Positions 1-14,856 of a stretch of DNA of 14,856 nucleotides are shown here, one piece after another. The DNA is from an uncultured Acidobacteriota bacterium (GTDB taxonomy: Bacteria; Acidobacteriota; JAAYUB01), in contig CALAMB010000307.1 in NCBI GenBank assembly GCA_937925645.1, positions 1-14,856 on the forward strand, written 5' to 3'. Below the pieces are notes generated by a model that worked only from the letters and a program-made list of their open reading frames with translations, was not told where the DNA came from and did not search any database. The first letter of the stretch is position 1; each line of letters begins with the position of its first letter. The position numbers and the translations under genes are program-made.

Positions 1-522
1 AAGACCTCCTATCCCTGCTAGAAGTCCTGCTCCAGCAACCGCTCCCCCACCGACCAGGGCTCCCGTACTCGCCAATCCTGACATCACCCCAGGACCAGAC
101 AAACCCGCCACCGCGCCGCAGGACGAGACCACCTCGACAGCACCCAGACCCGTTGCTACCGAAGAACCTGCGGTTGCCACTTTGACGGCGCCATCGACCT
201 GGTCGCTCGTGTGGATTCCATCAATGCACCACATCATAAAGTGTTCGCAGTTGTTGCCCCAGATCGAATAAGCATCTTCACCCAGGCGAGATCGAGCGCG
301 TTCGACAGCTGCTTCGCAGGAGTATCGTCGGTTCGGGTGCTTCTTTACCTGAATCTGGCAGGATCCGGCGAAAGTGCTGAGCGAGACTTCGCAGATGGGT
401 CCTGCTTCTAATCCATTCGAAAGGCCGGCATAGTGGATGACCTTTCCGTTGCCGACTCCCAACCCGTGGTGCGTATAAACGCCCTTGTCGATGTAGAGAT
501 GAGCTCCAAAATATTCGTCCAT
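1..522 (-). CDS. LRAT-domain (NlpC/P60-like) protein, 3' end cut by window edge
   Basis: Reading the complement from ATG at 522 gives 174 residues with no stop before the window edge, so the C-terminus is missing. The start is set by a near-perfect ribosome binding site, AAAGGAGGT, 5 nt upstream. Visible motifs are H18-H19-G, V-I-H30-Y-A-G and N-N-C92-E-H-F followed by W-C-x-D-G. This is the His/His/Cys pattern of the lecithin:retinol acyltransferase (LRAT, PF04970) fold, whose members form acyl-thioester intermediates as acyltransferases, phospholipases or thiol hydrolases. H19, H30 and C92 are the likely catalytic residues. After about residue 115 the chain becomes a Gly/Ala/Val-rich hydrophobic stretch, which could contact membranes. 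It lies downstream of, and parallel to, the zinc-ribbon gene with a 173-nt gap, so it may belong to the same transcript or have its own promoter. The fold assignment is firm. The substrate and role, whether housekeeping or effector-like, cannot be told. Confidence 0.85.
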   Translation of the reverse strand, partial: MDEYFGAHLYIDKGVYTHHGLGVGNGKVIHYAGLSNGLEAGPICEVSLSTFAGSCQIQVKKHPNRRYSCEAAVERARSRLGEDAYSIWGNNCEHFMMWCIDGIHTSDQVDGAVKVATAGSSVATGLGAVEVVSSCGAVAGLSGPGVMSGLASTGALVGGGAVAGAGLLAGIGGL

Positions 523-1997: not shown

Positions 1998-2168
1998 ATG
2001 TTCCCCATCCGGGACCGAGGCAGCAGGGGGGCCCTCGACTCCCGGCGGTATGTTTCCGCCAGGTGCCAAACGTCCTCGAAGTGTATCCATCGACTCAACC
2101 GTTCGGGCCCACACCGGATTTTGGGCCGCCTTAACAACCACAATTTGGGGAGAACTCGCGATGAGTAG
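1998..2168 (+). CDS. unrecognised basic 56-aa ORF ahead of the GIY-YIG gene
   Basis: ATG at 1998 is preceded by AGGAG (1984-1988) with a 9-nt spacer. The frame runs 56 codons to TAG at 2166-2168 and overlaps the GIY-YIG start at 2161 by 8 nt, so the two could be translationally coupled. The product begins MFPIRDRGSRGALDSRRY and is rich in Arg, Ser and Asn, with no hydrophobic segment and no motif I recognise. It could be a small partner protein, a leader peptide controlling the next gene, or an open frame by chance. The good ribosome binding site argues for translation, while the odd composition argues against a conserved folded protein. Confidence 0.3.
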   Translation: MFPIRDRGSRGALDSRRYVSARCQTSSKCIHRLNRSGPHRILGRLNNHNLGRTRDE

Positions 2169-3053
2169 GACCTTTGCGGATTTTGAATTTCGAATCGTTT
2201 GCGCCATCCAGCCGGAGCGAGACACCGCAGGGCAGATTTTGGAAGACTATCCGGAGCTTCGATTCGACAATCCCCGCAACTTGTCCTTGAACAAGTACGG
2301 GCGGGGACCCTTCTGCCGGTTTCGAATCCCATCCGAGTGGTCGGGGCGGTCGGGAGTCTACATTCTCACGCGGAACGGCGTACCAGTTTACGCTGGCAAG
2401 TGTGACGACTTGGCGGTTCGCTTCAATATGGGATACGGACAGATTTCCCCCGGAACTGTTACCAGGGGGGGCAGGAGACCAATTGCCGGATCAACGCCGA
2501 GATCCTCCGGGCCGTTCAGTCCGGCGCCCGGATCGAGCTATTTTTCCACTCCACGTCGAATTCTGCCGAGATCGAGGCGGCGGTGATCAGCCGCCTTCAA
2601 ACACCTTGGAACCGGCAAATTCCAAGTCCGCCCTCAATATCCAGACCGGGCCTCAGTTCTCCAGTCAGGAGTTCTGCAGATACTCCTGTCGGCCGAGAAA
2701 TTCCCGCCCCCTCGATGCCCCCTGCCTCGTTTGAGGATTTCTGGAGAATGCTGACCACGGGTCTGAGTAACCGGACTGTAATCCGGAATTGGACTGTGGA
2801 CAAGGGGCATCTGGGACAAGGTGATTTCACGGCACAAGCGGCACGAGACTATGTTCTTTGCGACGCACCAGGTGCAGGGCATCTCCAACGAGTCCCGAAG
2901 CGTGACTTCGAAATGATGTTCGAACGATGGAACGCGTACCTGCATGGTGCTGTCCGCCGATCCGAAATGCGGGATTTCAGCCGCTTCACCAAATACACCA
3001 TCAGCATTTTGCATCACTTTCTGGGCGGACAGGCGACACCATCCCGCAGATGA
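2161..3053 (+). pseudogene. GIY-YIG nuclease with one-base frameshift in a C tract
   Basis: ATG at 2161 has GGGGAG 8 nt upstream. The first frame gives a GIY-YIG nuclease start: G65-V-Y67, V-Y77-A-G, catalytic-type R87, then GYGQISP. There it goes out of frame at a five-C tract (2447-2451). Adding one base restores the rest in the frame ending at 3053: RNCYQGG, TNCRIN, E139 in the AEIEAAVI helix and P-W-N151, the usual GIY-YIG Glu and Asn positions. The restored protein is 297 residues. After a Pro/Ser-rich linker (about 152-188) comes a C-terminal module, about 245-288, starting VPKRDFEMMFERWNAYLHG. I recall similar short modules at the end of restriction-type proteins. GIY-YIG enzymes cut DNA with a divalent metal, and a restriction or homing role is likely. 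Either a sequencing or assembly error or a true inactivating mutation could explain the shift. All catalytic positions survive, which favours error or very recent loss. Confidence 0.75.
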
Positions 3054-3156: not shown

Positions 3157-6100
3157 ATGACACCAGTTGAACACGAGCAAATCCCTCGCCCGGGCATGTT
3201 TGCCACGGTGCGCAACCGCCGGGGAGTGATCGCGGCCGTAGAGCCGTTTGACGGCGAGGACGGCCGGCTCCACCTGGTGGACCTGGAGTACAAGGACGAT
3301 CAGCACCCTCTTGAAGAGCGACTGCTCTGGGAGCTGGAGCCGCACAAAATGCTGCTGGAGCCGACGGCCCTCCCTGACCCGGCCCGTTCCGACGCCATGG
3401 CGGCCGACGACTTCGACGCGCTCCTCCGGGCGGCCCGGTGGAGCGCCGCCACGCCCTTCCTCGATCCCGATGGCGAGGGCCCGCTGGACAAGCTGCCGAT
3501 CCAGAGCCCCTTCCACGGCGCCGTGCTCAGCGAGGACTTCCAGCTGGTGCCCCTCTTGAAGGCGATGCGGATGCCTCGCGTCAACCTGCTCATCGCCGAC
3601 GACGTGGGCTTGGGCAAGACCGTCGAAGCTGGCCTGATCCTCACCGAGCTCCTCCTGCGCCGCCGCATCCAGCGGGTGCTCATCCTCACCCCCGCCTCGC
3701 TGCGCCTGCAGTGGCGGGACGAGATGTGGGACAAGTTCGCCCTCTCCTTCGACCTCGTGGACCGCGCCGAGACCCACGCCCTGCGCCGCCGGCTGGGGCT
3801 GGACGCCAATCCCTGGCGCGCCTTCAGCCGGATCATCGCCTCCTACCACTACCTGCGCCAGCCGGACGTGCTGGATCAGTTCCTGGTCGCCTGTCGGACT
3901 CCCGAGGGCTCTCCCCACCTGCCGTGGGACCTGCTCATCGTGGACGAGTGCCACAACCTGATGCCGTCGGCTTTCGGTGACGACAGCGACCTGTGTCGGA
4001 TGCTGCGCCTGGTGGCGCCGCAGTTCGAGCACCGCCTCTTCCTCAGCGCCACGCCCCACAACGGCCACACCCGCTGCTTCACCGGCCTGCTGGAGATCCT
4101 GGACCCAGTGCGTTTCAGCCAGACCGACGAGCTCCGGTCGGCCGAGCGGGAGCGTGTGCAGCAGGTCGTGGTCCGGCGGCTCAAGCGCGACATCAACGCG
4201 CGCACCACGCCGCCGCGCTTCTGCACCCGCCACGAGCCGCACGCCTTGATCCTCAAGCTGTCCAAGGAGGAGTTCGCCCTTAGCGACGCATTCGATGCCT
4301 TCCGCACTGCCATCCGGCGGCTGATCCAAGCAGGCAGCCGGCGCCGTCGGCGGGCTGGCAGTTTCGCCGTGGAGATCCTCGGCAAGCGGCTCCTGAGTTG
4401 CCCCACAGCCTTCGCCGAGTCGTGGCGGCGCTGCAAGGAAGGCTTGGGAGGCGCGGAGGCCGCCTCCGACGCCGACGTCGAGACGGCGCAGAAATCCGTG
4501 GAAGGGGACACTGCCGACGATCGCGAGACCCAGTCCCGCGAAGCCACTGCCGCCGGGGTGGTCGGCGCGTGGATGAAGACCGTGGCCACCGAGCTTCGGG
4601 ATGAAATCGCGCGAATCGACCAGGCCCTGACCGGCTTGGGACTGGATCTGCAGGCCGGAGATCCGGTCGCGCAAGATCCAGCGGCCGACGCCCGTCTGGA
4701 CGCTCTGTTCGAACTAATCGAAAACTTTGTGCGGGCCGGCGGATCCTGGAAGGACGACGAGCGGCTGGTCGTGTTCACCGAGTACAAGACCACCCTGGAC
4801 TATCTGACTCGCCGCTTGCGCGCACGCTACCAGGAGGAACGCATCCTCAACCTGTTCGGCGGCATGGACGAGATCGGGCGGGATGTCGTCAAGCAGGCCT
4901 TCAACGACCCGGTCCAGTCGGTGCGGATCCTCGTGGCCACCGACGCCGCGGCGGAAGGTCTCAACCTCCAGAGCACCGCGCGCTACATGCTTCACTTCGA
5001 CTGTCCCTGGAACCCGTCCCGCCTCGAGCAGCGCAACGGCCGGGTGGACCGCCACGGCCAGGCGCGCGACGTGACGGTGTATCACTTCGTCAGCGATCTT
5101 GACCAGGACCTCAAGTTCCTCGACCACGTGATCCATAAGGCCCACGACATCCGGGACGACCTCGGCTCGGCCAATGAGCTGTTCGACGAGGCGACGCACC
5201 GCCGCCTGGTGGACGGCGAGGACGCCGCCTTGGTGCGCGCCGACCTGGACCGCCAGATCGAGACCGCCCGGGGCCGGGCTGCCGTCGACGCCGACGACAC
5301 GGTCTCCACGGGCGAAGGCGAAGACGTGATCCAGGCGCAGCTCGACGCCCTGGCGGCCGAGCTGGACCTGAATCCCGACACGCTCCGCGGCACCCTCGAG
5401 ACGGCCCTGGCGATCCGCGCCGGCCGTCCGCAGCTGGAAGGCCCCCTGCCGGACGGCACCTGCCGGATCCTCCGCCCCGACCTGGCTGGATGGATTGAGG
5501 TGGTGGACGAATCGCTCCGGCGGCCCACGCCCGGCGGGCAGCTCGGCCCGGTGGCCCGCCTCGCCTTCAGCCCCGAAGCGCTGCTGGTGGACGTGGGCGG
5601 CCGCCAGATCTTTTCCCCGCGGCCGGACGTGCAGCTGCAGCACCTCTCCCACCCCATGCTGCAGCGGGCGCTCTCGACGCTGACCCGCCGCCGCTACCCC
5701 GGCACCGGTGATGAGGTGTCCCGTTGGACCGTCCGCCTGGGGGAGGTTCCCGAGGGAACGGACGCCCTGATTCTCTTCAGCGTCGAGGAACTGGCCGTCA
5801 ACGAACTGCGCGAGACTTTCCACCACTGGGTGCGCACCCTGGTGTTCCCCATCCGTGGCGACCGTTTGGATGATCCCCTGCCGCACCGTCCGGCCCGGGT
5901 GCTCAACCACTCCCGTCCCACCCACGAGAAAGCCGATCACGACCGGGCCAGCGAACTGCTCGGTGAGGTGATCCACGATCTCAAGCAAGTCCTGACGGCG
6001 CACGGGCAGGATCTCTCCCGCCGCCTGTTGCAGGAATTGCAGGAGGCCGGCGAGGAAGCCCGCCGGCAAGAAGAAGCCCGCTACCGCAGCCGCTTGGGCG

Positions 6101-6411
6101 AGGTCTCGTCCCTCATCTCCGAGAACACCCTGGCCAAGCTGGAGCGGGAGATCGCCAAACTCAAGGTCCAGCGCCAGCAGGGGCTCCTCTTCGACGCCGA
6201 AGCCCGCCTGGAGGCCATCGACCGGTCCATCGAGGAAAAGCAGGAAGAGGTCGACCGGCGGAAGAAGCACTACGAGGAGGTCCGCGGCCAGCTGGAGCGG
6301 GAGCGAGAACGCGTCCAGAAACGGCTGTTGCCCAAGCGGCACGCCATGGCCGGCCCCGCCCAGGTCTTTCCGGTCACCCTGGAAGTGCGCCTCCCGGGAG
6401 GTGCCTCATGA
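3157..6411 (+). CDS. drmD: DISARM-type SNF2-like helicase DrmD (1084 aa)
   Basis: The start at 3157 has AAGGA 10 nt upstream. The N-terminus (PGMFATVRNRRGVIAAVEP, then LWELEPH) and the phrase FHGAVLSEDFQLVPLLKAMR before lobe 1 match what I know of DrmD, the SNF2-like helicase of class 1 DISARM defence. Lobe 1 has Walker A D149-V-G-L-G-K154-T, a DECH box at D263-E264-C-H266 and motif III S297-A-T. Lobe 2, about 525-690, has VVFTEYKTT, TDAAAEGLNLQ and motif VI Q625-R-N-G-R629-V-D-R632-H-G-Q. A charged insert of roughly 100 residues lies between the lobes. Residues about 929-1066 are a long Glu/Arg-rich coiled coil. All ATPase motifs are intact, so it should move on or remodel DNA. It heads the high-GC operon and overlaps the methyltransferase start by 4 nt (ATGA). 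The family is well supported. Membership of a true DISARM system is not, since drmA, drmB and drmC are not seen here. Confidence 0.9.
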   Translation: MTPVEHEQIPRPGMFATVRNRRGVIAAVEPFDGEDGRLHLVDLEYKDDQHPLEERLLWELEPHKMLLEPTALPDPARSDAMAADDFDALLRAARWSAATPFLDPDGEGPLDKLPIQSPFHGAVLSEDFQLVPLLKAMRMPRVNLLIADDVGLGKTVEAGLILTELLLRRRIQRVLILTPASLRLQWRDEMWDKFALSFDLVDRAETHALRRRLGLDANPWRAFSRIIASYHYLRQPDVLDQFLVACRTPEGSPHLPWDLLIVDECHNLMPSAFGDDSDLCRMLRLVAPQFEHRLFLSATPHNGHTRCFTGLLEILDPVRFSQTDELRSAERERVQQVVVRRLKRDINARTTPPRFCTRHEPHALILKLSKEEFALSDAFDAFRTAIRRLIQAGSRRRRRAGSFAVEILGKRLLSCPTAFAESWRRCKEGLGGAEAASDADVETAQKSVEGDTADDRETQSREATAAGVVGAWMKTVATELRDEIARIDQALTGLGLDLQAGDPVAQDPAADARLDALFELIENFVRAGGSWKDDERLVVFTEYKTTLDYLTRRLRARYQEERILNLFGGMDEIGRDVVKQAFNDPVQSVRILVATDAAAEGLNLQSTARYMLHFDCPWNPSRLEQRNGRVDRHGQARDVTVYHFVSDLDQDLKFLDHVIHKAHDIRDDLGSANELFDEATHRRLVDGEDAALVRADLDRQIETARGRAAVDADDTVSTGEGEDVIQAQLDALAAELDLNPDTLRGTLETALAIRAGRPQLEGPLPDGTCRILRPDLAGWIEVVDESLRRPTPGGQLGPVARLAFSPEALLVDVGGRQIFSPRPDVQLQHLSHPMLQRALSTLTRRRYPGTGDEVSRWTVRLGEVPEGTDALILFSVEELAVNELRETFHHWVRTLVFPIRGDRLDDPLPHRPARVLNHSRPTHEKADHDRASELLGEVIHDLKQVLTAHGQDLSRRLLQELQEAGEEARRQEEARYRSRLGEVSSLISENTLAKLEREIAKLKVQRQQGLLFDAEARLEAIDRSIEEKQEEVDRRKKHYEEVRGQLERERERVQKRLLPKRHAMAGPAQVFPVTLEVRLPGGAS

Positions 6412-9400
6412 ACGGCGTCACCCTTCCTGGCTGGGACCGGCTGCGGCACGGCGGCCTCCTCCTGGACCCTCCCCGCCTGCGCGGGCTGGAACCGCACATC
6501 CCCCAAACACTTTCATATTATCTCGAGCAGGAGCTGCGCCGGCGGACCGCGGCGGTGACGGAAGGGGAGGCTGAAGCCGCCGAGTTCGTCCTGTTCGTGT
6601 TGCAGCAAATCTGCGGGTTCGGTCCGGACAGCGGCGCTTGGCGGCGCGGCCCGCAACTGGGCGCCGAGTGGGGCCGCCGGGCGGTCACCGGCGAGACGGT
6701 CAAGCCCCGGGCCCTCTGGCAAGGATCTCACGGAGCCGTCCTCCCGATGTTCCTGGACACGGAGAGGCGGATCGGCATCGGCCGCGGCCGCAAGGCCCAC
6801 AGCGGCGTGCTGCAGTGGCTCCGCGCCGGCCGCGAGCGGCTGGCCCTCCTCACCAACGGGCGCCAGTGGCGGCTGCTGTTCGCCGGCCTGGACTTCGACG
6901 CCTGGTGCGAGTGGGACGCGGAGCTCTGGTTCGAAGAAGGCGCCCTTTCCCCACAGGTGACCATCCTGCGCACCCTGTTCCAGCCGGCACTCTGGACGCC
7001 TCCGGCGGCGGACGAATCCGCGCCACTCCTGGCCGCCATCCTCGACAGCCGCAAGGGGCAGGCGGAACTCTCGGCGGTGCTCGGCGAGCGGGTGCGCGAG
7101 GCGGTGGAGCTGCTGGTGCAGGCCCACGGCGACGTGCTGCGGGACCGCGGCGCCGGCATCGACCCGGCCGACATCTATCGTGCCGCCGTGCGCGTGGTGA
7201 TGAGGCTGGTGGTGGCGCTGTTTGCCGAGTCGCGCGAACTCATGCCCCGGGACAATCCTCTATACCATGGGAGCTACGGAGTCACCGGCCTGCTGGAGGA
7301 GCTGGAAAAGAGCGCCGCCCGCGGCGGCGGCCGCCTGGCCCGCTCCTGGAACGCCTGGCCACGGCTCCTGGCCCTGTTCTGCCTGGTGCGGCAGGGTTCC
7401 TGCCATCCCTCTCTCCCCGTGCCGGCGTATGGCGGCGAGCTGTTCGCCCCGGGCGATCCGGACTCCGCCGACGGACTGAGCCGAGCCCTGGCGGTGTTCG
7501 AGACCGCCTGCTTCCAGCACGAGGTCCTGCCCGACCGCGACGTCCTCAAGCTGCTGGAGCGCATCACCCGCACCCGGGTGAAGGTCCGGCAGGGCCGCGC
7601 CAGCACGTGGGTGCCGGCGCCGGTGGACTTCTCGGACCTCTCCAGCGAGTACATCGGCATCCTCTACGAGGGCCTGCTGGATTTCGAGCTCAAGACCGCC
7701 CCCGCCGGCGACCCGGTGGTGTTCCTGGCGGTGGGCAACCAGCCGGCGCTGCCCCTGTCCCGGCTGGAGGCCATGAGCGACAAGGCGCTCCAGGACCTCT
7801 TCGAAAAACTCAAGGACACCTCCAGCAAAGGCGATGAGTCCGAAGAAGAAGCCAACGAGGAAGAAATTGCGGAGGAAGCCGGGGAAGAATCGGACGCCGT
7901 TGGGTCCGAAGAGGAAGATCCTGAAGAGGCCGAAGAGCCGGAGGACGAACTCGGCGACGAGCGTCACTCCACGCGCACTCGGGCCGAGGCTTGGGCCCGG
8001 CGCGCCGTGGAGGTGGCCGGCCTGGCCCACCGCCCCCGCGGCCGCCTGACCCCAGAGCGCCAGCTGGCCCACGAGGCCGCCCTCACCCGAAAGGCCCGCC
8101 AACTTGTCGAGCGAGTGCTGCTACCGGGCGAGTGGTACCTGGTGCGCTGGGGCGGCACCCGCAAGGGCGCCGGCACGTTCTACACCCGGCCCGGCCTGGC
8201 CGTGCCCACGGTGCAGCGCACCCTGCGCCCGCTGGCGTATGAGCCCCTCAAAGGGCCGGACGGCGCCCCCGACCCGGACGCGCCGCCTTCATACTGGACG
8301 CCCCGCAAACCCCAGGAGATCCTGACCCTCCGGGTCTGCGACCCGGCCTGCGGCTCGGGCAGCTTCCTGGTGGCGGCGCTGCGGTTCCTGACGGAGGCCC
8401 TCTACCAGTCGCTGCACGCCCACGAGCGATTGAAGGAGGACCCCGGCCGCCCCTTGGACGTGATCCTGGGCCTGGTCCCGCCGGGGCCGGACGCCGAGAC
8501 CGCCCAGGCGATGCGACTGCCCTGCCGGCCGGAAGACGAGGACTTCGAGCGGCGCACCCAGGCGGTGCTGCGCCGGTACGTGGTGGAGCGGTGCCTCTAC
8601 GGCGTGGACCTCGACCCCCTGGCGGTGGAGCTGTGCCGCCTGGCCCTGTGGGTGGAGACCATGGACCGGACGCTGCCTTTCTCCTTCCTCGACCACAAGG
8701 TCAAGTGCGGCAACAGCCTGGTGGGCGCCTGGTTCGACCAGTTCCCGCACTACCCCGTGATGGCCTGGAAAAACCGCGAGGGGGGTGACAAGAACCACAC
8801 CCACGGCGTGCACTTCGAGAAGGAAGCCCGCACCAAGGCGATCAAGGAGTTCGTCCGGACGAAGCTCACGCCGGACCTGGCGGCGGCGATCGCCGGGCAG
8901 AAGACACTGCGGGGGCTCACCCCGGCGCAGGCGGCCTCCACCCACGCCGATCTCAAGGCGCTGCTGGCTAGGCTGCACGAGTTGCCGGTGCAGGACAGCG
9001 CCGAGCGGGCCCGCCGCTACCGGGAGGAGCTGCTGGGCTCCCCGGCCTACCTCGCCCTGAAGGAGGCCCTGGACCTCTGGTGCGCCTGCTGGTTCTGGCC
9101 CGCGGACGACCTGACCCACGCGCCGCTGCCCTCCACCCTGTCGGCGCCGCCGGAGGAAACCCGGCAGGCGGCCCGACACATCGCCGCCGCCAAGCGCTTC
9201 TTCCACTGGGAGCTGGAGTTCCCCGACGTGTTTCACGAGGCGGGCGCGGGATTCGACGCCATCCTGGGCAACCCGCCGTGGGACACGGCCAAGCCCAACT
9301 CCAAGGAGTTCTTCTCCAACATCGACCCGCTATACCGCAGCTATGGGAAGCAGGAAGCCCTTCGCTACCAAGTGGATTATTTCGAGAGTGCCGAGGTGGA

Positions 9401-11696
9401 GCACGCCTGGCTGAACTACAACGCCGACTTCCGGGCCCAGTCCAATTTCGTGAGTTATGCCGCCAGCGCCTTTGGGGATCCGACGGAGAACGAGGGGCAG
9501 GACCGTTTCACCATCAGCCGGAGTAAGGACCAGAACGAGAAACTCCACGGCCGCTGGCGCATGGCTCGGGCCGGAAGCAAGGGATTTGCTGACCGGGATC
9601 ATCCATTCTGCCACCAGGGTTCGGCCGATTTGAACCTCTACAAACTCTTCCTCGAACAGGCGCATGTTCTTCTGCGACCCGGCGGCCGGATGGGCCTGAT
9701 CGTCCCGTCGGGCCTCTACTCGGACCACGGCACCGGCGCCCTGCGCAAGCTGTTCCTGGACCGCTGCCGGTGGGAGTGGCTGTTCGGGTTCGAGAACCGG
9801 GAAGGCATTTTCGAAATCCACCGGTCGTTCAAGTTCAACCCGGTCATCCTGCAGAAGGGTGGCCGGACGGAGGCCATCCGCACCGCCTTCATGCGCCGCA
9901 AGCTCGAGGACTGGGAGCGGGCCGAGGAGCTGGCCACGCCCTACGCCCGTGCCCAGGTGGAGCGCTTCAGCCCCCGCTCCCTGGCCATCCTGGAGATCCA
10001 ATCGGCCCGCGACCTGGAGATCCTGGAGAAGATCTACGCCAATTCCGTGCTACTGGGCGACGAGGGGCCGGACGGCTGGGGGATAAAGTACGCCACGGAA
10101 TTCCACATGACCAACGACTCGAAGCTCTTCCCGCCGCGGCCGTGGTGGGAGGAGCGCGGCTACCGCCCCGACGAGTACAGCCGCTGGCTCCAGGGCGACT
10201 GGCGGTCCATCGCCGAACTGTGGGCGGAGCTGGGCATCGACCCGACCCGGTCACGCCCCGTAGAGGTGGAGCTGGAAGAGTGGCTGTTCGAAGCAGGCGT
10301 TTCCCCGGAGGAGCGTGCCGCCCGGGCCCGTTTCGTCCACGGTCACTGGCTCAAGCCCGGCGACGTGCAGCGTACCGAGTGGAAGCTCCGCTGCGCCCAG
10401 CCCCCGTATGATCACTTGCCCATCCCCCGCGCCGACATCCCCCCCGGCATCATCCTCTCCCGCGACGCCGATGCCTGGATCCGGGAGGAACAGATTGATG
10501 ACGTAGCCTTGCCGCTATACCAAGGTGGAGTATTGTCTCACTTTTCCCCTTTTGCACAAGGCTTCGCGGGTGGAAGCGGCCATTCCGTGAAATGGGAGCC
10601 GATACCTTTATCGAATTCTAGAATGGAACCACAATATCTAATTTCATATTCTGCTGCGTTGGACAAAGGTTGGCAACCAACAAGAGCACGAGTGCTGTAT
10701 AGGTACATAGGAAGTGATACAAACTCGAGAACTTTCATTCCAACTCCGGGGTACGCTTCTCCTGCTGGCCATACAGTAGGGGTCCTGCATCTAAAAAATC
10801 AGCTTCAAGAAATCCTTTTATTAGCATCTGTTTTAGGAAGCTTTTGTTTTGATTGGTGTGTTCGAATCGGTTTTAGTGGTAACGGAGCCGGTGCACTTGA
10901 TCCTTCGAAGATCGCTGACCGACCAGTCATAAAGAATATACCAAGAGGAGCTGCTTCCCACGTTTTGAGACTTGCAGGAATAGCCTGTTCGCTTTCAGAT
11001 TGGTGGATTTCTTGTAGCTCTTCATTTGAAAACATGCCTCAACTTAAACAAATCTGGGCTCTCGCCAATAGTGAGAGGATCAGATTAATGAGCTGTATTG
11101 ATGTTCTTGTCGCACGTTGCTATGGAGCTGATAATTCATTCCTACAATGGGTACTTCGCGAAACTGATAATCCTCAAGTGAACACGAGAGACCGCTTATT
11201 CACTCGCACTCTTTATCCAAAAGGTTTCTGGCGTATAGACAAGGACAAAGATCCCGAGTTGCGGCATACGGTGCTGACGCTGGTAGCCTTTCACGATTTG
11301 GAGGAAAAGATCCGCGCCGCGGGAGGGGACCGCGAAAAAGGCATCGAGGCGTTCCTGAACCAGAACGACGGCGAAGGCTGGATGCTCCCCGAGACGCTGC
11401 GGCTGACCGATTACGGCCTCGGCCACGACGAGCGGGCAAAGCACCCCCAGCCGGTGGCCAGCCGTCTCGGGCCCCGCTTCTACGACTGGCAGCTGGCCCA
11501 GACCGCCGATGAGTCCTGGCAGGAATGCCACCTCCATGCCCGAAACCTCCTGGGAGAGGAGGGATACCAGCAACTCCTCCGGGAAAGTATGAATCAAGGC
11601 AATCAAGATTCGAAGGTTGACCCAAAGGCGGGACCCGCCGAACCCCCGCAGAGCAGCGGCACCGCTCCGGCGAACGGCCAGCGCAAGCTCTTCTAG
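6408..11696 (+). CDS. large adenine-specific DNA methyltransferase, Eco57I/DrmMI-like (1762 aa)
   Basis: The gene overlaps drmD by 4 nt and is therefore translationally coupled. The SAM-binding motif I is D645-P-A-C-G-S-G-S-F, followed by YGVDLDPLAVELCRLALWVE (motif II region). Catalytic motif IV is N955-P-P-W958, the order and form of gamma-type N6-adenine methyltransferases. About 300 residues separate the two motifs, which is long, as in Eco57I, PglX and DrmMI enzymes. The N-terminal 600 residues include LLTNGRQWRLLF, common in this superfamily. I see no convincing PD-(D/E)xK nuclease site there. Residues 476-518 are a very acidic linker (26 of 43 Asp/Glu). Residues about 1365-1610 (RVLYRYIGSDTNSRTFIP and following) are the likely target-recognition domain and are encoded by AT-richer DNA. 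The protein ends QRKLF, a possible sliding-clamp motif. Its likely job is to methylate host DNA so the system spares it. The DrmMI assignment rests on its pairing with drmD. Confidence 0.9.
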   Translation: MNGVTLPGWDRLRHGGLLLDPPRLRGLEPHIPQTLSYYLEQELRRRTAAVTEGEAEAAEFVLFVLQQICGFGPDSGAWRRGPQLGAEWGRRAVTGETVKPRALWQGSHGAVLPMFLDTERRIGIGRGRKAHSGVLQWLRAGRERLALLTNGRQWRLLFAGLDFDAWCEWDAELWFEEGALSPQVTILRTLFQPALWTPPAADESAPLLAAILDSRKGQAELSAVLGERVREAVELLVQAHGDVLRDRGAGIDPADIYRAAVRVVMRLVVALFAESRELMPRDNPLYHGSYGVTGLLEELEKSAARGGGRLARSWNAWPRLLALFCLVRQGSCHPSLPVPAYGGELFAPGDPDSADGLSRALAVFETACFQHEVLPDRDVLKLLERITRTRVKVRQGRASTWVPAPVDFSDLSSEYIGILYEGLLDFELKTAPAGDPVVFLAVGNQPALPLSRLEAMSDKALQDLFEKLKDTSSKGDESEEEANEEEIAEEAGEESDAVGSEEEDPEEAEEPEDELGDERHSTRTRAEAWARRAVEVAGLAHRPRGRLTPERQLAHEAALTRKARQLVERVLLPGEWYLVRWGGTRKGAGTFYTRPGLAVPTVQRTLRPLAYEPLKGPDGAPDPDAPPSYWTPRKPQEILTLRVCDPACGSGSFLVAALRFLTEALYQSLHAHERLKEDPGRPLDVILGLVPPGPDAETAQAMRLPCRPEDEDFERRTQAVLRRYVVERCLYGVDLDPLAVELCRLALWVETMDRTLPFSFLDHKVKCGNSLVGAWFDQFPHYPVMAWKNREGGDKNHTHGVHFEKEARTKAIKEFVRTKLTPDLAAAIAGQKTLRGLTPAQAASTHADLKALLARLHELPVQDSAERARRYREELLGSPAYLALKEALDLWCACWFWPADDLTHAPLPSTLSAPPEETRQAARHIAAAKRFFHWELEFPDVFHEAGAGFDAILGNPPWDTAKPNSKEFFSNIDPLYRSYGKQEALRYQVDYFESAEVEHAWLNYNADFRAQSNFVSYAASAFGDPTENEGQDRFTISRSKDQNEKLHGRWRMARAGSKGFADRDHPFCHQGSADLNLYKLFLEQAHVLLRPGGRMGLIVPSGLYSDHGTGALRKLFLDRCRWEWLFGFENREGIFEIHRSFKFNPVILQKGGRTEAIRTAFMRRKLEDWERAEELATPYARAQVERFSPRSLAILEIQSARDLEILEKIYANSVLLGDEGPDGWGIKYATEFHMTNDSKLFPPRPWWEERGYRPDEYSRWLQGDWRSIAELWAELGIDPTRSRPVEVELEEWLFEAGVSPEERAARARFVHGHWLKPGDVQRTEWKLRCAQPPYDHLPIPRADIPPGIILSRDADAWIREEQIDDVALPLYQGGVLSHFSPFAQGFAGGSGHSVKWEPIPLSNSRMEPQYLISYSAALDKGWQPTRARVLYRYIGSDTNSRTFIPTPGYASPAGHTVGVLHLKNQLQEILLLASVLGSFCFDWCVRIGFSGNGAGALDPSKIADRPVIKNIPRGAASHVLRLAGIACSLSDWWISCSSSFENMPQLKQIWALANSERIRLMSCIDVLVARCYGADNSFLQWVLRETDNPQVNTRDRLFTRTLYPKGFWRIDKDKDPELRHTVLTLVAFHDLEEKIRAAGGDREKGIEAFLNQNDGEGWMLPETLRLTDYGLGHDERAKHPQPVASRLGPRFYDWQLAQTADESWQECHLHARNLLGEEGYQQLLRESMNQGNQDSKVDPKAGPAEPPQSSGTAPANGQRKLF

Positions 11697-11698
11697 TG

Positions 11699-11704
11699 AA
11701 GGAG
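11699..11704 (+). promoter_or_regulatory. ribosome binding site choosing the third gene's start
   Basis: AAGGAG stands 3 nt from ATG at 11708 and 9 nt from the in-frame ATG at 11714. The second spacing is the normal one, so 11714 is preferred. The two products differ by two residues. Confidence 0.6.
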
Positions 11705-11713
11705 AGAATGTCC

Positions 11714-14700
11714 ATGAAACTGGATGGTTCCCTGCTGCTGCTCGCCGCCACAGATCTGGCCAATCACCTCGCCTGCAGGCACCTGACGGAGTTGGACCGG
11801 GCGGTGGCCGAAGGCCGGCTGGGCGCGCCTGTGTGGCGGGATCCCGCCCTGGAACTGCTCCAGGAGCGGGGCCTGGCCCACGAACGCGGTTTCGTCGAGA
11901 GCCTGCGCGCCGGGGGCCTCGACGTCGTGGACCTGCGCGACGTAGAGGGCGCTTCGGCCGCCGAACGGACGCTCCAGGCCATGCGGCAGGGCGCGGGCGC
12001 CATCGTGCAGGGAGAGCTGTGCGAGGGCCGGTGGCGGGGCCGGGCCGATGTCTTGGTCCGGGTCGCCAGCCCCAGCGCCCTGGGTGATTGGTCGTACGAG
12101 GTCTACGACACGAAGCTGGCCCAGGAAACCCGCGGCGGGACCGTCCTACAGCTCTGCCTCTACTCGGACCTTCTCGGCCGGCGGCAGGGCCGGGCGCCTG
12201 AGTACATGCACGTGGTCAAGCCCGGCGAGGGCTTCCCCCGCGAGACATTTCGCCTGGCCGACTTTCAGGCCTACTATCGCCTGGTGAAGGGCCGGCTCGA
12301 GGAGGCTGTGGACCGGCCCCCTTCCGGCTCAACTTATCCGAACCCGACGAATCATTGCGACGTCTGCCGCTGGTGGCGCGAGTGCGACGAGCGCCGGCAC
12401 GTCGACGACCACCTGAGCCTGGTGGCGGGGCTGGGCTCGCTGCACATCGGCGAGCTGCAGCGGCAGGGCATCGGCACCCTGGAGGAGTTTGCCGTCCGGC
12501 CGGAGCCGCTGCCCGAGCGGCCCGTCCGGGGCAGCCTGGAAGCCTTTGACCGCGCCCACGGCCAAGCCCGAGTCCAGTTGCAGGGACGTCGGGAGGCACG
12601 GCCCGTCCACGAGCTGCTCCCGGCGGAGGCAGGGCGGGGTTTGGCGCGGCTGCCCGAGCCCGACGCCGGTGACCTCTTCTTCGACATCGAGTCGGACCCG
12701 TTCGTCGACGGCGGAGGTTTGGAGTACCTGCTAGGAGTGGCATTCCGTGGCGCCGGCGGCACCCTGGAGTACCGCAGCTTCTGGGGGCTCGACCGCGCGG
12801 CCGAGCGGCGGGCGTTCGAGGACTTCATGGATTTCGTCATGGAGCGCTGGCGTGGGCACCCCGGCATGCACCTGTACCACTTCTCGCCGTACGAGCCGGC
12901 GGCGGTGAAGCGCCTCATGGGCCGGCACGGCGCCCGCGAGGCGGAGGTGGACCGGCTGCTGCGCGGGGGCCGTTTCGTCGATCTGTTGGCGGCGACGAGG
13001 CAGGGCTTGCGGGCCAGCGTCGAAAGCTACTCCCTCAAGGAGCTGGAGCAGTTCTTTGGCTTCGGGCGCACGGTGGAGCTCCATGCGGCGTCCGGGGCGC
13101 TGCGACGGGTGGCCTGCGTTTTGGAGCTGGCTACGGCGGAGGAGATCCCGCCCCGAGATCTGGAGATTGTCGAAGGCTACAACCGGGACGACTGCCTGGC
13201 CACGGCGGCGTTGCGGGAGTGGCTGGAGGCCCGGCGGGACGAGCTTCTGGCCACCGGAGCTTCGGTGGACCGGCCGGAAGCCAGCGATGACCAAGCCAGC
13301 CAGGCGATTCAGGTGTGGGAAGCAGAAGTGCAGGCCGTGTTCGATGGCTTAGTGAACGGCCTGCCGGAGGATCGCGCGGCGTGGGGCCCGGCGGAGCAGG
13401 CCCGCTGGCTGCTGGCCCACCAGCTTGAGTACTTCCACCGCGAGGACCGCTGCGCCTGGTGGGAGTACTTCCGCCTCCGCGACCTGGAGCCCGACGACCT
13501 ATTCGACGAGCGCAAGGCTATCGCGGCTTTGGAATTTATCGGCGTCGCCGGCGGAACGGAGAGATGTCCTATTCATCGCTATCGATTTCCCGCTCAGGAA
13601 GCGGCTTTGGATGAAGGTAATGATCTTTGTGTGCCGGGTGGTGATCTTGTTGGAAAGGTGGCGGTGTTTGATCCCGTTCGAGGCATTCTGGAAATCAAGA
13701 AACGAGGAGATTCGGCTAGTATCCATCCAGCCGCGGTGTTTGTGAAAGATCGGGTTCCTCCTGGCCCCAACGCTCCCGCTATACTGGATGTGGGTCGCTC
13801 AATCGCCCAGAACGGAGTGGACGGCGAAGGCCCCTACCACGCCGTGCGGAACCTGCTACTGAAGCAACTCCCAAGGTTGTCTGGAGGGAGTGGGGGGGCA
13901 CTCCGGAGGCGCGGCGAAGATGTTGTGGAGGCGGCGGTCCGGTTGGCACGGAACCTGGACCACGGCGTTCTGCCTATCCAAGGGCCGCCCGGCAGCGGCA
14001 AGACCTACGCTGGCGCCCGGATGATCGTGGCCTTGGCGCGGGAGGGCCGAAGCGTCGGCGTGACGGCGGTGAGCCACAAGGTCATTGAAAATCTACTCAA
14101 GGCGATCCATTCCGCCGCCACTGAGATAGGCGTTCCCCTCCGGACAATCCACAAGGTCACTAAACAAAGCGAAGTTGTGCCTCAGGGAATAGAAGAGGTG
14201 ACGAGCAACGGTGCAGCCCAGGCCGGTCTGGCGCAAGGGGGAGTGGTGGGGGGAACCACCTGGCTGTGGACTTGTGAGGAAATGATCGGATCGGTGGACT
14301 ACTTATTTGTCGATGAGGCGGGTCAAATGTCGCTGGCGCAGGCGCTAGCGGCGGGGAGGTGCGCCCGGAACCTGGTGCTGCTGGGCGACCCGCAGCAACT
14401 CGAGCAGCCGCAGCGCGGGGCGCACCCTGAGGGCGCCGAGGTGGCTGCCCTGGTCCACGTCCTCGACGGCCGCAAGACCATCGCCGACGAAATGGGACTG
14501 TTCCTGGACGAGACCTGGCGGCTGCATCCTTCCATCTGCGCCTTCACCTCGGAGCTGTACTACGAGGGCCGGCTGCAGTCCCGGCCGGGGCTGGAGCGGC
14601 AGGCGCTGACCGGCGACACGCCCTTCGCCTGCAGCGGCCTCTTCCTTGTCCCGGTGGAACACGCGGGCAACCAGAGCAGCTCCCGGGAGGAGGTGGCGGC

Positions 14701-14809
14701 TGTCGCCGCCATCGTGGGCGGGCTGACATCGGGAAGAGTCTCCTGGATCGACAAGGATGGCCGGAGCCATCCGCTGCAGGAGCGCGACATCCTGGTCATC
14801 GCCCCCTAC
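11714..14809 (+). CDS. TM0106-like RecB nuclease / DEDDy exonuclease / SF1B helicase, 3' end missing
   Basis: 1032 genuine residues are present. The frame then reads into adapter sequence, so the real C-terminus is lost. Domains in order follow. First, a RecB/Cas4-like nuclease (about 1-225) has D112, D132-T-K134 and Q146-x3-Y150; C21 together with C215-x2-C218-x5-C224 fits the 4Fe-4S ligand set of Cas4, AddB and Dna2. Second, an RNase H-like DEDDy exonuclease (about 316-510) has D324-I-E326, YHFSPYE, FVD423LLA and Y489-N-R-D-D493-C. Third, a UPF1/Dna2-type SF1B helicase (from about 735) has G757-P-P-G-S-G-K763-T, F-V-D867-E868-A-G-Q, L-G-D-P-Q-Q-L and TWRLHPSIC; it stops at ILVIAPY, just before motifs V and VI. 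The TM0106 family (TIGR03491) has this plan. It starts 17 nt after the methyltransferase stop, so it is probably the operon's DNA-degrading effector. A 13561-13740 stretch is less GC-rich (about 51%). Confidence 0.88.
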
Positions 14810-14856
14810 AGATCGGAAGAGCGTCGTGTAGGGAAAGAGTGTAGATCTCGGTGGTC
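14810..14856. other. Illumina TruSeq adapter read-through (artefact)
   Basis: All 47 terminal bases, beginning AGATCGGAAGAGCGTCGTGT, match from memory the reverse complement of the TruSeq universal adapter. Translated in the third gene's frame they give RSEERRVGKECRSRW, a well-known contaminant peptide in protein databases. The genomic sequence ends at 14809, or within one base of it. Confidence 0.97.

What the first reader, a model, noticed from the sequence alone, without database searches (positions are those of the whole stretch)
3157..14809. Candidate DISARM-like defence operon with a Dna2/TM0106-type nuclease-helicase in place of drmABC
Seen: DrmD-type helicase, large N6-adenine methyltransferase and a RecB-DEDDy-SF1B protein, in one direction with a 4-nt overlap and a 17-nt gap. 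Known: class 1 DISARM pairs DrmD and DrmMI with DrmA, DrmB and DrmC. Here the gene after the methyltransferase is a different, multi-nuclease helicase. Inferred: a compact three-gene modification and degradation system in which one polypeptide does the unwinding and both cuts. I do not recall a named system with this gene set, but my recall is not a search.
Basis: partly seen in the sequence, partly recalled or inferred. Interest (0 to 1): 0.8.

Follow-up and report, generated by a model that had tools for sequence, protein, structure and literature searches.

The report
Defence operon with embedded helicase-nuclease gene
This is most likely the front part of a recently described bacterial anti-virus gene set (ARMADA, a cousin of DISARM) with an extra DNA-degrading helicase gene in a spot where relatives often carry other spare defence genes; the piece of DNA ends before the expected last core gene could be seen.

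Summary
The third is cut off: 14810-14856 is Illumina adapter. "In place of drmABC" is not supported. Of 74 genome loci with this methylase, 48 show on the same contig a YprA/DruE-type helicase behind it, ArmC of ARMADA (PMC12458937); 20 of the 25 genomes of the other 26 loci have one elsewhere. The armB-armC junction is an insertion slot (0 to about 17 kb) that often holds known defence genes: AbiE, DarTG, DRT, Mokosh, OLD, type II R-M. The window's TM0106 gene sits at the start of that slot. So this is most likely an ARMADA operon with an embedded auxiliary Dna2-like nuclease, armC lying beyond the contig end. No TM0106 was found in those 48 slots, so the combination rests on one contig. TM0106 genes do recur directly beside other restriction systems (ARMADA in another order, BREX-related DUF1156/DUF499, McrBC, SNF2 with N6/N4 methylase and ResIII, TmtA), which suggests a swappable backup nuclease. 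New variant of a known kind.

The parts
3157..6411 (+). armA/drmD-like SNF2 (BrxHII-like) helicase, 1084 aa, DECH box
6408..11696 (+). armB/drmMI-like, type IIG-related N6-adenine DNA methylase, 1762 aa; overlaps the helicase gene by 4 nt, as in 37 of 61 relatives measured
6507..7043 (+). methylase residues 34-212: restriction-endonuclease-like fold without a conserved (D/E)-x-K (probably a dead nuclease domain; suggestive only)
8340..8366 (+). SAM-binding motif I, DPACGSGSF (residues 645-653)
9270..9281 (+). catalytic motif NPPW (residues 955-958)
10608..11207 (+). methylase residues 1401-1600: variable block between conserved flanks, candidate target-recognition domain
   Evidence: 11 sequences
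11697..11713 (+). 17-nt spacer with AGGAG; start of the slot where relatives carry other genes or armC
11714..14809 (+). TM0106-family RecB-like / DEDDy exonuclease / SF1 helicase, 3' end missing (about 1035 of 1137 residues aligned)
12038..12163 (+). RecB-like nuclease motifs GRAD, DTK, QLCLY (residues 109-150)
12677..13192 (+). DEDDy-type RNase H-fold exonuclease motifs FFDIE to YNRDD (residues 322-493)
13982..14320 (+). helicase Walker A GPPGSGKT and Walker B FVDEA (residues 757-869)
14810..14856 (+). Illumina sequencing adapter left on the contig end (artefact)

Best explanation
The window holds the first two core genes (armA helicase, armB methylase) of an ARMADA-type defence operon, a relative of class 1 DISARM, followed by one embedded accessory gene of the TM0106 family; the third core gene, armC, most likely lies beyond the contig end. 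Likely working (inferred): ArmB reads a short motif with its variable block and methylates host DNA. ArmA and the distal ArmC (YprA/DruE-like helicase; a Vsr-type nuclease at its C-terminus according to the ARMADA preprint, not checked here) act on unmethylated invading DNA. ArmB's own nuclease-like domain seems to have lost its catalytic residues, so cutting must come from another subunit. The TM0106 protein is a Dna2-like helicase-nuclease that would degrade DNA ends or single-stranded DNA exposed by the core system or by phage replication, as an auxiliary or backup effector.
For: (1) ArmC-like protein after the same methylase, same strand, in 48 of 74 loci. The one representative scanned, from L001, matches DruE3 at 349 bits against DrmA at 50 bits, has an MZB domain, and its best PDB sequence matches are a 2108-aa DEAD/DEAH helicase (9tu7) and YprA 6znp. 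(2) ArmC in 15 of 20 further genomes whose contigs end soon after or inside armB. (3) Insertions over 400 nt in 25 of 37 armB-armC junctions against 7 of 61 armA-armB junctions, Fisher P = 1.6e-8. (4) 20 of 27 slot ORFs scanned, from 16 loci, hit PADLOC at E below 1e-10, against 3 of 17 flanking ORFs (Fisher P = 4.8e-4). (5) The 4-nt armA-armB overlap is the family norm (37 of 61). (6) Methylase residues 1401-1600 are variable; the N-terminal model resembles BpuSI/HsdR nucleases without a conserved (D/E)xK in 24 sequences. (7) TM0106: best Foldseek match is Dna2, E 4e-14, though the model has pTM 0.40. (8) TM0106 lies beside a Mre11-like/Rad50-like pair in L077 (Pfam Metallophos; AAA_23) and beside genes annotated DNA repair exonuclease and AAA ATPase in L155 (annotation only). 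(9) Embedded auxiliary nucleases are described for BREX and BREX-related systems (PMC12839542, section 35 part 1 of 2 read).
Against: armC is not in the window and cannot be tested there. No TM0106 was found in the 48 slots examined, so this combination stands on one contig. Five of 25 genomes had no proper ArmC (G004, G015, G392, G400 none; G393 a C-terminal domain only), so a pair without armC is possible, though these are drafts, all but one titled as MAGs. The locus sample leans to close relatives (two peptide patterns, best 80 of 92 kept). I chose the slot ORFs (plus strand, larger ones first), while the control ORFs were the nearest of 200 aa or more on either strand, so the enrichment is approximate. 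The preprint says type I ARMADA generally has the YprA gene first. No activity data.
Confidence: 0.75

Rival explanations
1. One reading: TM0106 replaces the missing partners, giving a compact three-gene modification and degradation system with no armC or drmABC.
For: Tight 17-nt spacing and same strand; TM0106 carries helicase and two nuclease modules; runs ending in TM0106 exist elsewhere: L079 DrmD-like helicase - TmtA - TM0106 and L176 SNF2 - N6/N4 methylase - ResIII - TM0106 at a contig end; 5 of 25 genomes lacked a proper ArmC.
Against: armC follows armB in 48 of 74 loci and is in 20 of the 25 genomes of the rest; no other locus in my samples has armA-armB-TM0106; the window is truncated by adapter.
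Confidence: 0.15
2. TM0106 is a chance neighbour (for instance a DNA-repair helicase-nuclease) with no functional tie to the defence pair. This is compatible with armC lying downstream.
For: TM0106 genes are mostly elsewhere: of 20 loci fetched (18 of the 26 genomes with a match among 347 in the phylum of G035, and 2) none is beside ArmA/ArmB, nor is any of 13 viral-contig loci, one of them a doubtful match.
Against: TM0106 sits directly beside SNF2-helicase/methylase or McrBC-like systems in several unrelated arrangements with overlaps or short gaps (L077, L079, L151, L176, L187, L193); the slot is enriched for defence genes.
Confidence: 0.2
3. Assembly artefact: the armB-TM0106 junction is chimeric.
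For: Adapter at the contig end shows imperfect read cleaning; no read coverage can be inspected; the junction was not found elsewhere.
Against: armB is complete to its conserved C-terminus and TM0106 starts at the family start with an AGGAG 9 nt upstream.
Confidence: 0.07

Closest known systems
[quoted passage not shown] Bell et al. 2025, PMC12458937; abstract, sections 5, 6, 8, 9, 12 and passages read)
   Same: BrxHII/RapA-like helicase (ArmA) plus PglX-like methylase (ArmB) in this order; relatives continue with a YprA/DruE-like ArmC, the order the preprint gives for type II and for type I in many archaea and cyanobacteria
   Different: armC not visible in the window; a TM0106 gene follows armB; no GajB/RelE fusion (ArmD) in the window; a cargo slot between armB and armC came up in none of the parts read (find terms included; sections 7, 10, 11 seen only as passages, if at all)
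DISARM class 1 (drmD, drmMI, drmA, drmB, drmC; gene set recalled, partly as cited in PMC12458937)
   Same: drmD- and drmMI-like pair; NCBIfam and PADLOC name P0001 DrmD
   Different: no drmA/B/C in the window; in the relative scanned the downstream protein is DruE-like, not DrmA-like
TM0106 family (TIGR03491) with Dna2/UPF1-like SF1 helicase domain
   Same: RecB-like nuclease, RNase H-fold exonuclease, SF1 helicase; full-length relatives mostly 1130-1160 aa in the list
   Different: no tested function found in print: none of the 25 papers listed (of 4,153) holds the word TM0106, and the two that do (25 of 30 listed) are corrosion papers
Auxiliary or backup nucleases embedded in BREX and BREX-related systems (PMC12839542; section 35 part 1 of 2 and passages read)
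   Same: extra nuclease gene inside or beside a methylation-based core
   Different: those named in the part read are HNH, HKD, PD-(D/E)XK, TOPRIM/OLD, HEPN, PIN and Schlafen; no TM0106/Dna2-like one is named there
Hna (single-gene helicase-nuclease defence; PMC13381803, passages read)
   Same: helicase plus PD-(D/E)XK nuclease in one polypeptide
   Different: Hna is SF2 with a C-terminal nuclease; TM0106 is SF1 with N-terminal RecB and RNase H modules

Membership tests
ARMADA | BrxHII/RapA-like SNF2 helicase (ArmA) | tested here: met
   DrmD and BrxHII models; DECH box
ARMADA | PglX-like adenine methylase (ArmB) directly after ArmA | tested here: met
   4-nt overlap
ARMADA | YprA-like helicase ArmC in the operon | not testable with these tools
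   window ends in adapter; present on the same contig in 48 of 74 relatives
ARMADA | ArmC with an active Vsr-type nuclease C-terminus | not tested
   one relative's ArmC is DruE-like; its nuclease domain was not checked
DISARM class 1 | DrmD and DrmMI | tested here: met
   but shared with ARMADA
DISARM class 1 | DrmA, DrmB (DUF1998) and DrmC (PLD nuclease) as separate genes | tested here: inconclusive
   absent from the window, which is truncated; in 48 relatives the downstream gene is ArmC-like, DruE-like with MZB in the one scanned; the loci were not searched model by model for DrmB and DrmC
Type IIG restriction-modification | active PD-(D/E)XK nuclease in the methylase polypeptide | tested here: not met
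   model resembles BpuSI/HsdR, but no conserved (D/E)-x-K in the 24 aligned sequences (read by eye)
TM0106 (TIGR03491) | score above the curated cut-off over the RecB/RNase H region | tested here: met
   255 bits against 97.45
BREX | PglZ and BrxC present | tested here: inconclusive
   none among the eight window proteins scanned, but the window is truncated

The most novel reading that the evidence does not exclude
TM0106 proteins are a general, swappable Dna2-like effector that plugs into many modification-dependent restriction systems (ARMADA, BREX-related DUF1156/DUF499, SNF2 with N6/N4 methylase and ResIII, McrBC, TmtA), often under a WYL regulator and sometimes with Mre11/Rad50-like partners; it works as a bacterial end-resection machine turned to phage DNA destruction. 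The window is one case, placed in an ARMADA cargo slot.
Probability: 0.4. Interest if true: 0.7.

Novelty: new variant of a known kind. Interest (0 to 1): 0.5.

Why it matters
If right, two things follow. First, the armB-armC junction is a place to look for unknown defence genes: 12 of 16 loci scanned carried a recognisable defence gene there, so the unrecognised neighbours are candidates. Second, a large protein family (6,204 proteins matched at E up to 0.001) for which I found no tested function gets a concrete hypothesis: an auxiliary resection nuclease of restriction systems, testable in a laboratory strain with single-gene deletions.

Tried and rejected
DISARM proper: rejected as the label because relatives carry an ArmC, DruE-like in the one scanned, not a DrmA-like protein. 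Conserved armA-armB-TM0106 trio: not found in 48 slots, in 20 TM0106 loci, in 19 TM0106 loci from the phyla of G026, G033 and G025 (8 of 343, 2 of 345 and 8 of 349 genomes matched at E up to 1e-200), or in 13 viral-contig loci. Weak ArmC-profile hits near TM0106 in L128 (64 bits, other strand) and L093 (114 bits) were not followed up. A plasmid search with the methylase gave one close relative, a fragmented Synechocystis ARMADA; the viral-contig search gave two loci, L075 and L076, without TM0106. The TM0106 search of phage records gave one weak hit. Own-genome search was impossible: none is held. Hna as the identity of gene 3: rejected on architecture. Paper searches; their listings showed nothing on TM0106 in defence or on an ARMADA cargo slot; supplements could not be opened.
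Full report
What is there. Three genes run in one direction: P0001 (3157-6411), P0002 (6408-11696) and P0003 (start 11714, cut at 14809). P0001 passes NCBI's own cut-off for DISARM DrmD (676 against 610 bits). P0002 is a type IIG/DrmMI-like adenine methylase with intact DPACGSGSF and NPPW. P0003 is a TM0106-family protein with RecB-like, RNase H-like and SF1 helicase parts. The last 47 bases of the window are sequencing adapter, so the third gene is incomplete and the contig says nothing of what follows. The identical methylase and a 99%-identical TM0106 protein are listed with other JGI contigs of 35,545 and 15,703 bases, which I could not open.

What follows this methylase elsewhere. An alignment of 11 methylases (A1) found 74 distinct genome loci (92 relatives, best 80 kept, two peptide patterns). 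The SNF2 helicase lies upstream in the 61 loci where both genes could be measured, 37 of them with exactly the 4-nt overlap of the window. Downstream, 37 loci show a homologue of one protein family, complete copies 1.8-2.0 kaa, within the fetched DNA. The representative scanned (L001) matches DruE3 at 349 bits and DrmA at only 50, has an MZB (MrfA zinc-binding) domain, and is closest in the PDB to a 2108-aa DEAD/DEAH helicase and YprA. This is the pattern of ArmC in ARMADA, a DISARM relative described in a 2025 preprint (PMC12458937; abstract, sections 5, 6, 8, 9, 12 and passages read). The other 37 loci lie in 36 genomes. Searching those for ArmC gave 16 of 16 (one of them, G024, also holds L033, whose ArmC piece is in its own locus) and 15 of 20, not counting a C-terminal fragment in G393. 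So ArmC is visible behind armB in 48 loci; of the 25 genomes of the remaining 26 loci, 20 have it elsewhere.

The slot. Between armB and armC the distance ranges from an ORF overlap to about 17 kb. Of the 37 in-locus junctions, 25 hold more than 400 nt, against 7 of 61 armA-armB junctions (Fisher P = 1.6e-8). I scanned 27 slot ORFs from 16 of the 25 loci; 20 hit PADLOC models at E below 1e-10, in 12 loci: AbiE pairs (L002, L071), AbiEii and a ZacB-like protein (L048), type II methylase-like and nuclease-like proteins (L012), Drt1a with PDC-S19 (L010), DarT-DarG (L024), SoFic with a UvrD/GajB-like helicase (L033), Old (L035), PDC-S68 (L028), pAgo-like (L042), MkoA-MkoB (L052), Orf5/HEC-06-like (L068). 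No such hit: L003, L021, L022, L026. Control: 3 of 17 nearest flanking ORFs outside the operon (11 upstream, 6 downstream; Fisher P = 4.8e-4). Three further genes soon after armB are also defence-like: Dsr1 in L036 (armC 14 kb on, same contig), TmtA in L040 and a ZorD/DpdE-like helicase in L059 (armC on other contigs). I picked the ORFs (plus strand, larger ones first) while the control took either strand, so the rate is approximate. No TM0106 was found in the 48 slots.

The TM0106 gene elsewhere. It is widespread and mostly not beside armA/armB: 26 of 347 genomes in the phylum of G035 have one at E up to 1e-100, and none of 20 fetched loci (18 of these genomes, 2) has ArmA or ArmB next to it. 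Yet in other samples it lies directly beside restriction systems. Plasmids: 119 records match, 40 were listed, 13 opened: L077 has WYL regulator, TM0106, Mre11-like, Rad50-like, ArmC, ArmA, ArmB; L079 has DrmD-like helicase, TmtA, TM0106 (11-nt gap); L151 has TM0106, AAA ATPase, McrC. Genomes: 19 loci from three phyla: L176 has SNF2 helicase, N6/N4 methylase, ResIII helicase, TM0106; L193 has TM0106 overlapping a SNF2/NOV_C helicase, then DUF1156 methylase and DUF499 (parts like those of 'BR' systems in PMC12839542, passages and section 35 part 1); L187 has two genes similar to L151's AAA-McrC pair, then TM0106. Seven TM0106 proteins 72-80% identical to one another (L077, L148, L150, L151, L188, L189, L192) have different downstream neighbours where these are visible. 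Together, 7 of 65 TM0106 loci examined (20, 19, 13 plasmid, 13 viral, one of the last a doubtful match) have an ArmA-type helicase in the fetched DNA at 60 bits or more: L077, L079, L148, L149, L176, L189, L193.

Verdict. The best reading is an ARMADA-type operon with an embedded TM0106 accessory, cut by the contig end. As a single case it is a modest finding. The slot, and the recurrence of TM0106 beside unrelated restriction systems, are what a specialist would want to follow.

Noticed in passing
armB-armC junction in L001-L074 and L161-L171: The junction is an insertion hotspot (0 to about 17 kb) that carries recognisable defence genes in 12 of 16 loci scanned; the unrecognised slot genes (e.g. 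in L003, L021, L022) are candidate new defence genes.
   Followed up: partly
L001:20458-21054 and other long ArmC proteins (L002, L019, L022, L024, L026, L027, L051, L058, L071): ArmC proteins of about 1970-1990 aa carry a C-terminal domain of about 190 aa (Pfam Peptidase_S24-like, 27.5 bits in L001) that shorter forms of about 1800 aa seem to lack; the same domain hits ORFs of about 1200 aa elsewhere in G006, G013, G391 and G393.
   Followed up: partly
L077, L148, L150, L151, L155 around TM0106: A gene annotated WYL regulator lies divergently next to TM0106 or one gene away, while the downstream genes differ; a WYL-TM0106 cassette may be the mobile unit.
   Followed up: partly
window 2050-2586 and 2583-3053: The first ORF has a stretch that looks GIY-YIG-like to the eye and then seems to change frame; the two ORFs may be one disrupted gene. 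No Pfam hit at E 0.001.
   Followed up: no
window 1-522 (-): A protein with an LRAT domain (PF04970, 70 bits), open at the contig start.
   Followed up: no
window 14810-14856: Untrimmed Illumina adapter at the contig end.
   Followed up: yes
L082 (Synechocystis sp. B12 plasmid): An ARMADA-like armA, armB, armC set broken into many short ORFs with transposases nearby, apparently a decayed copy.
   Followed up: no
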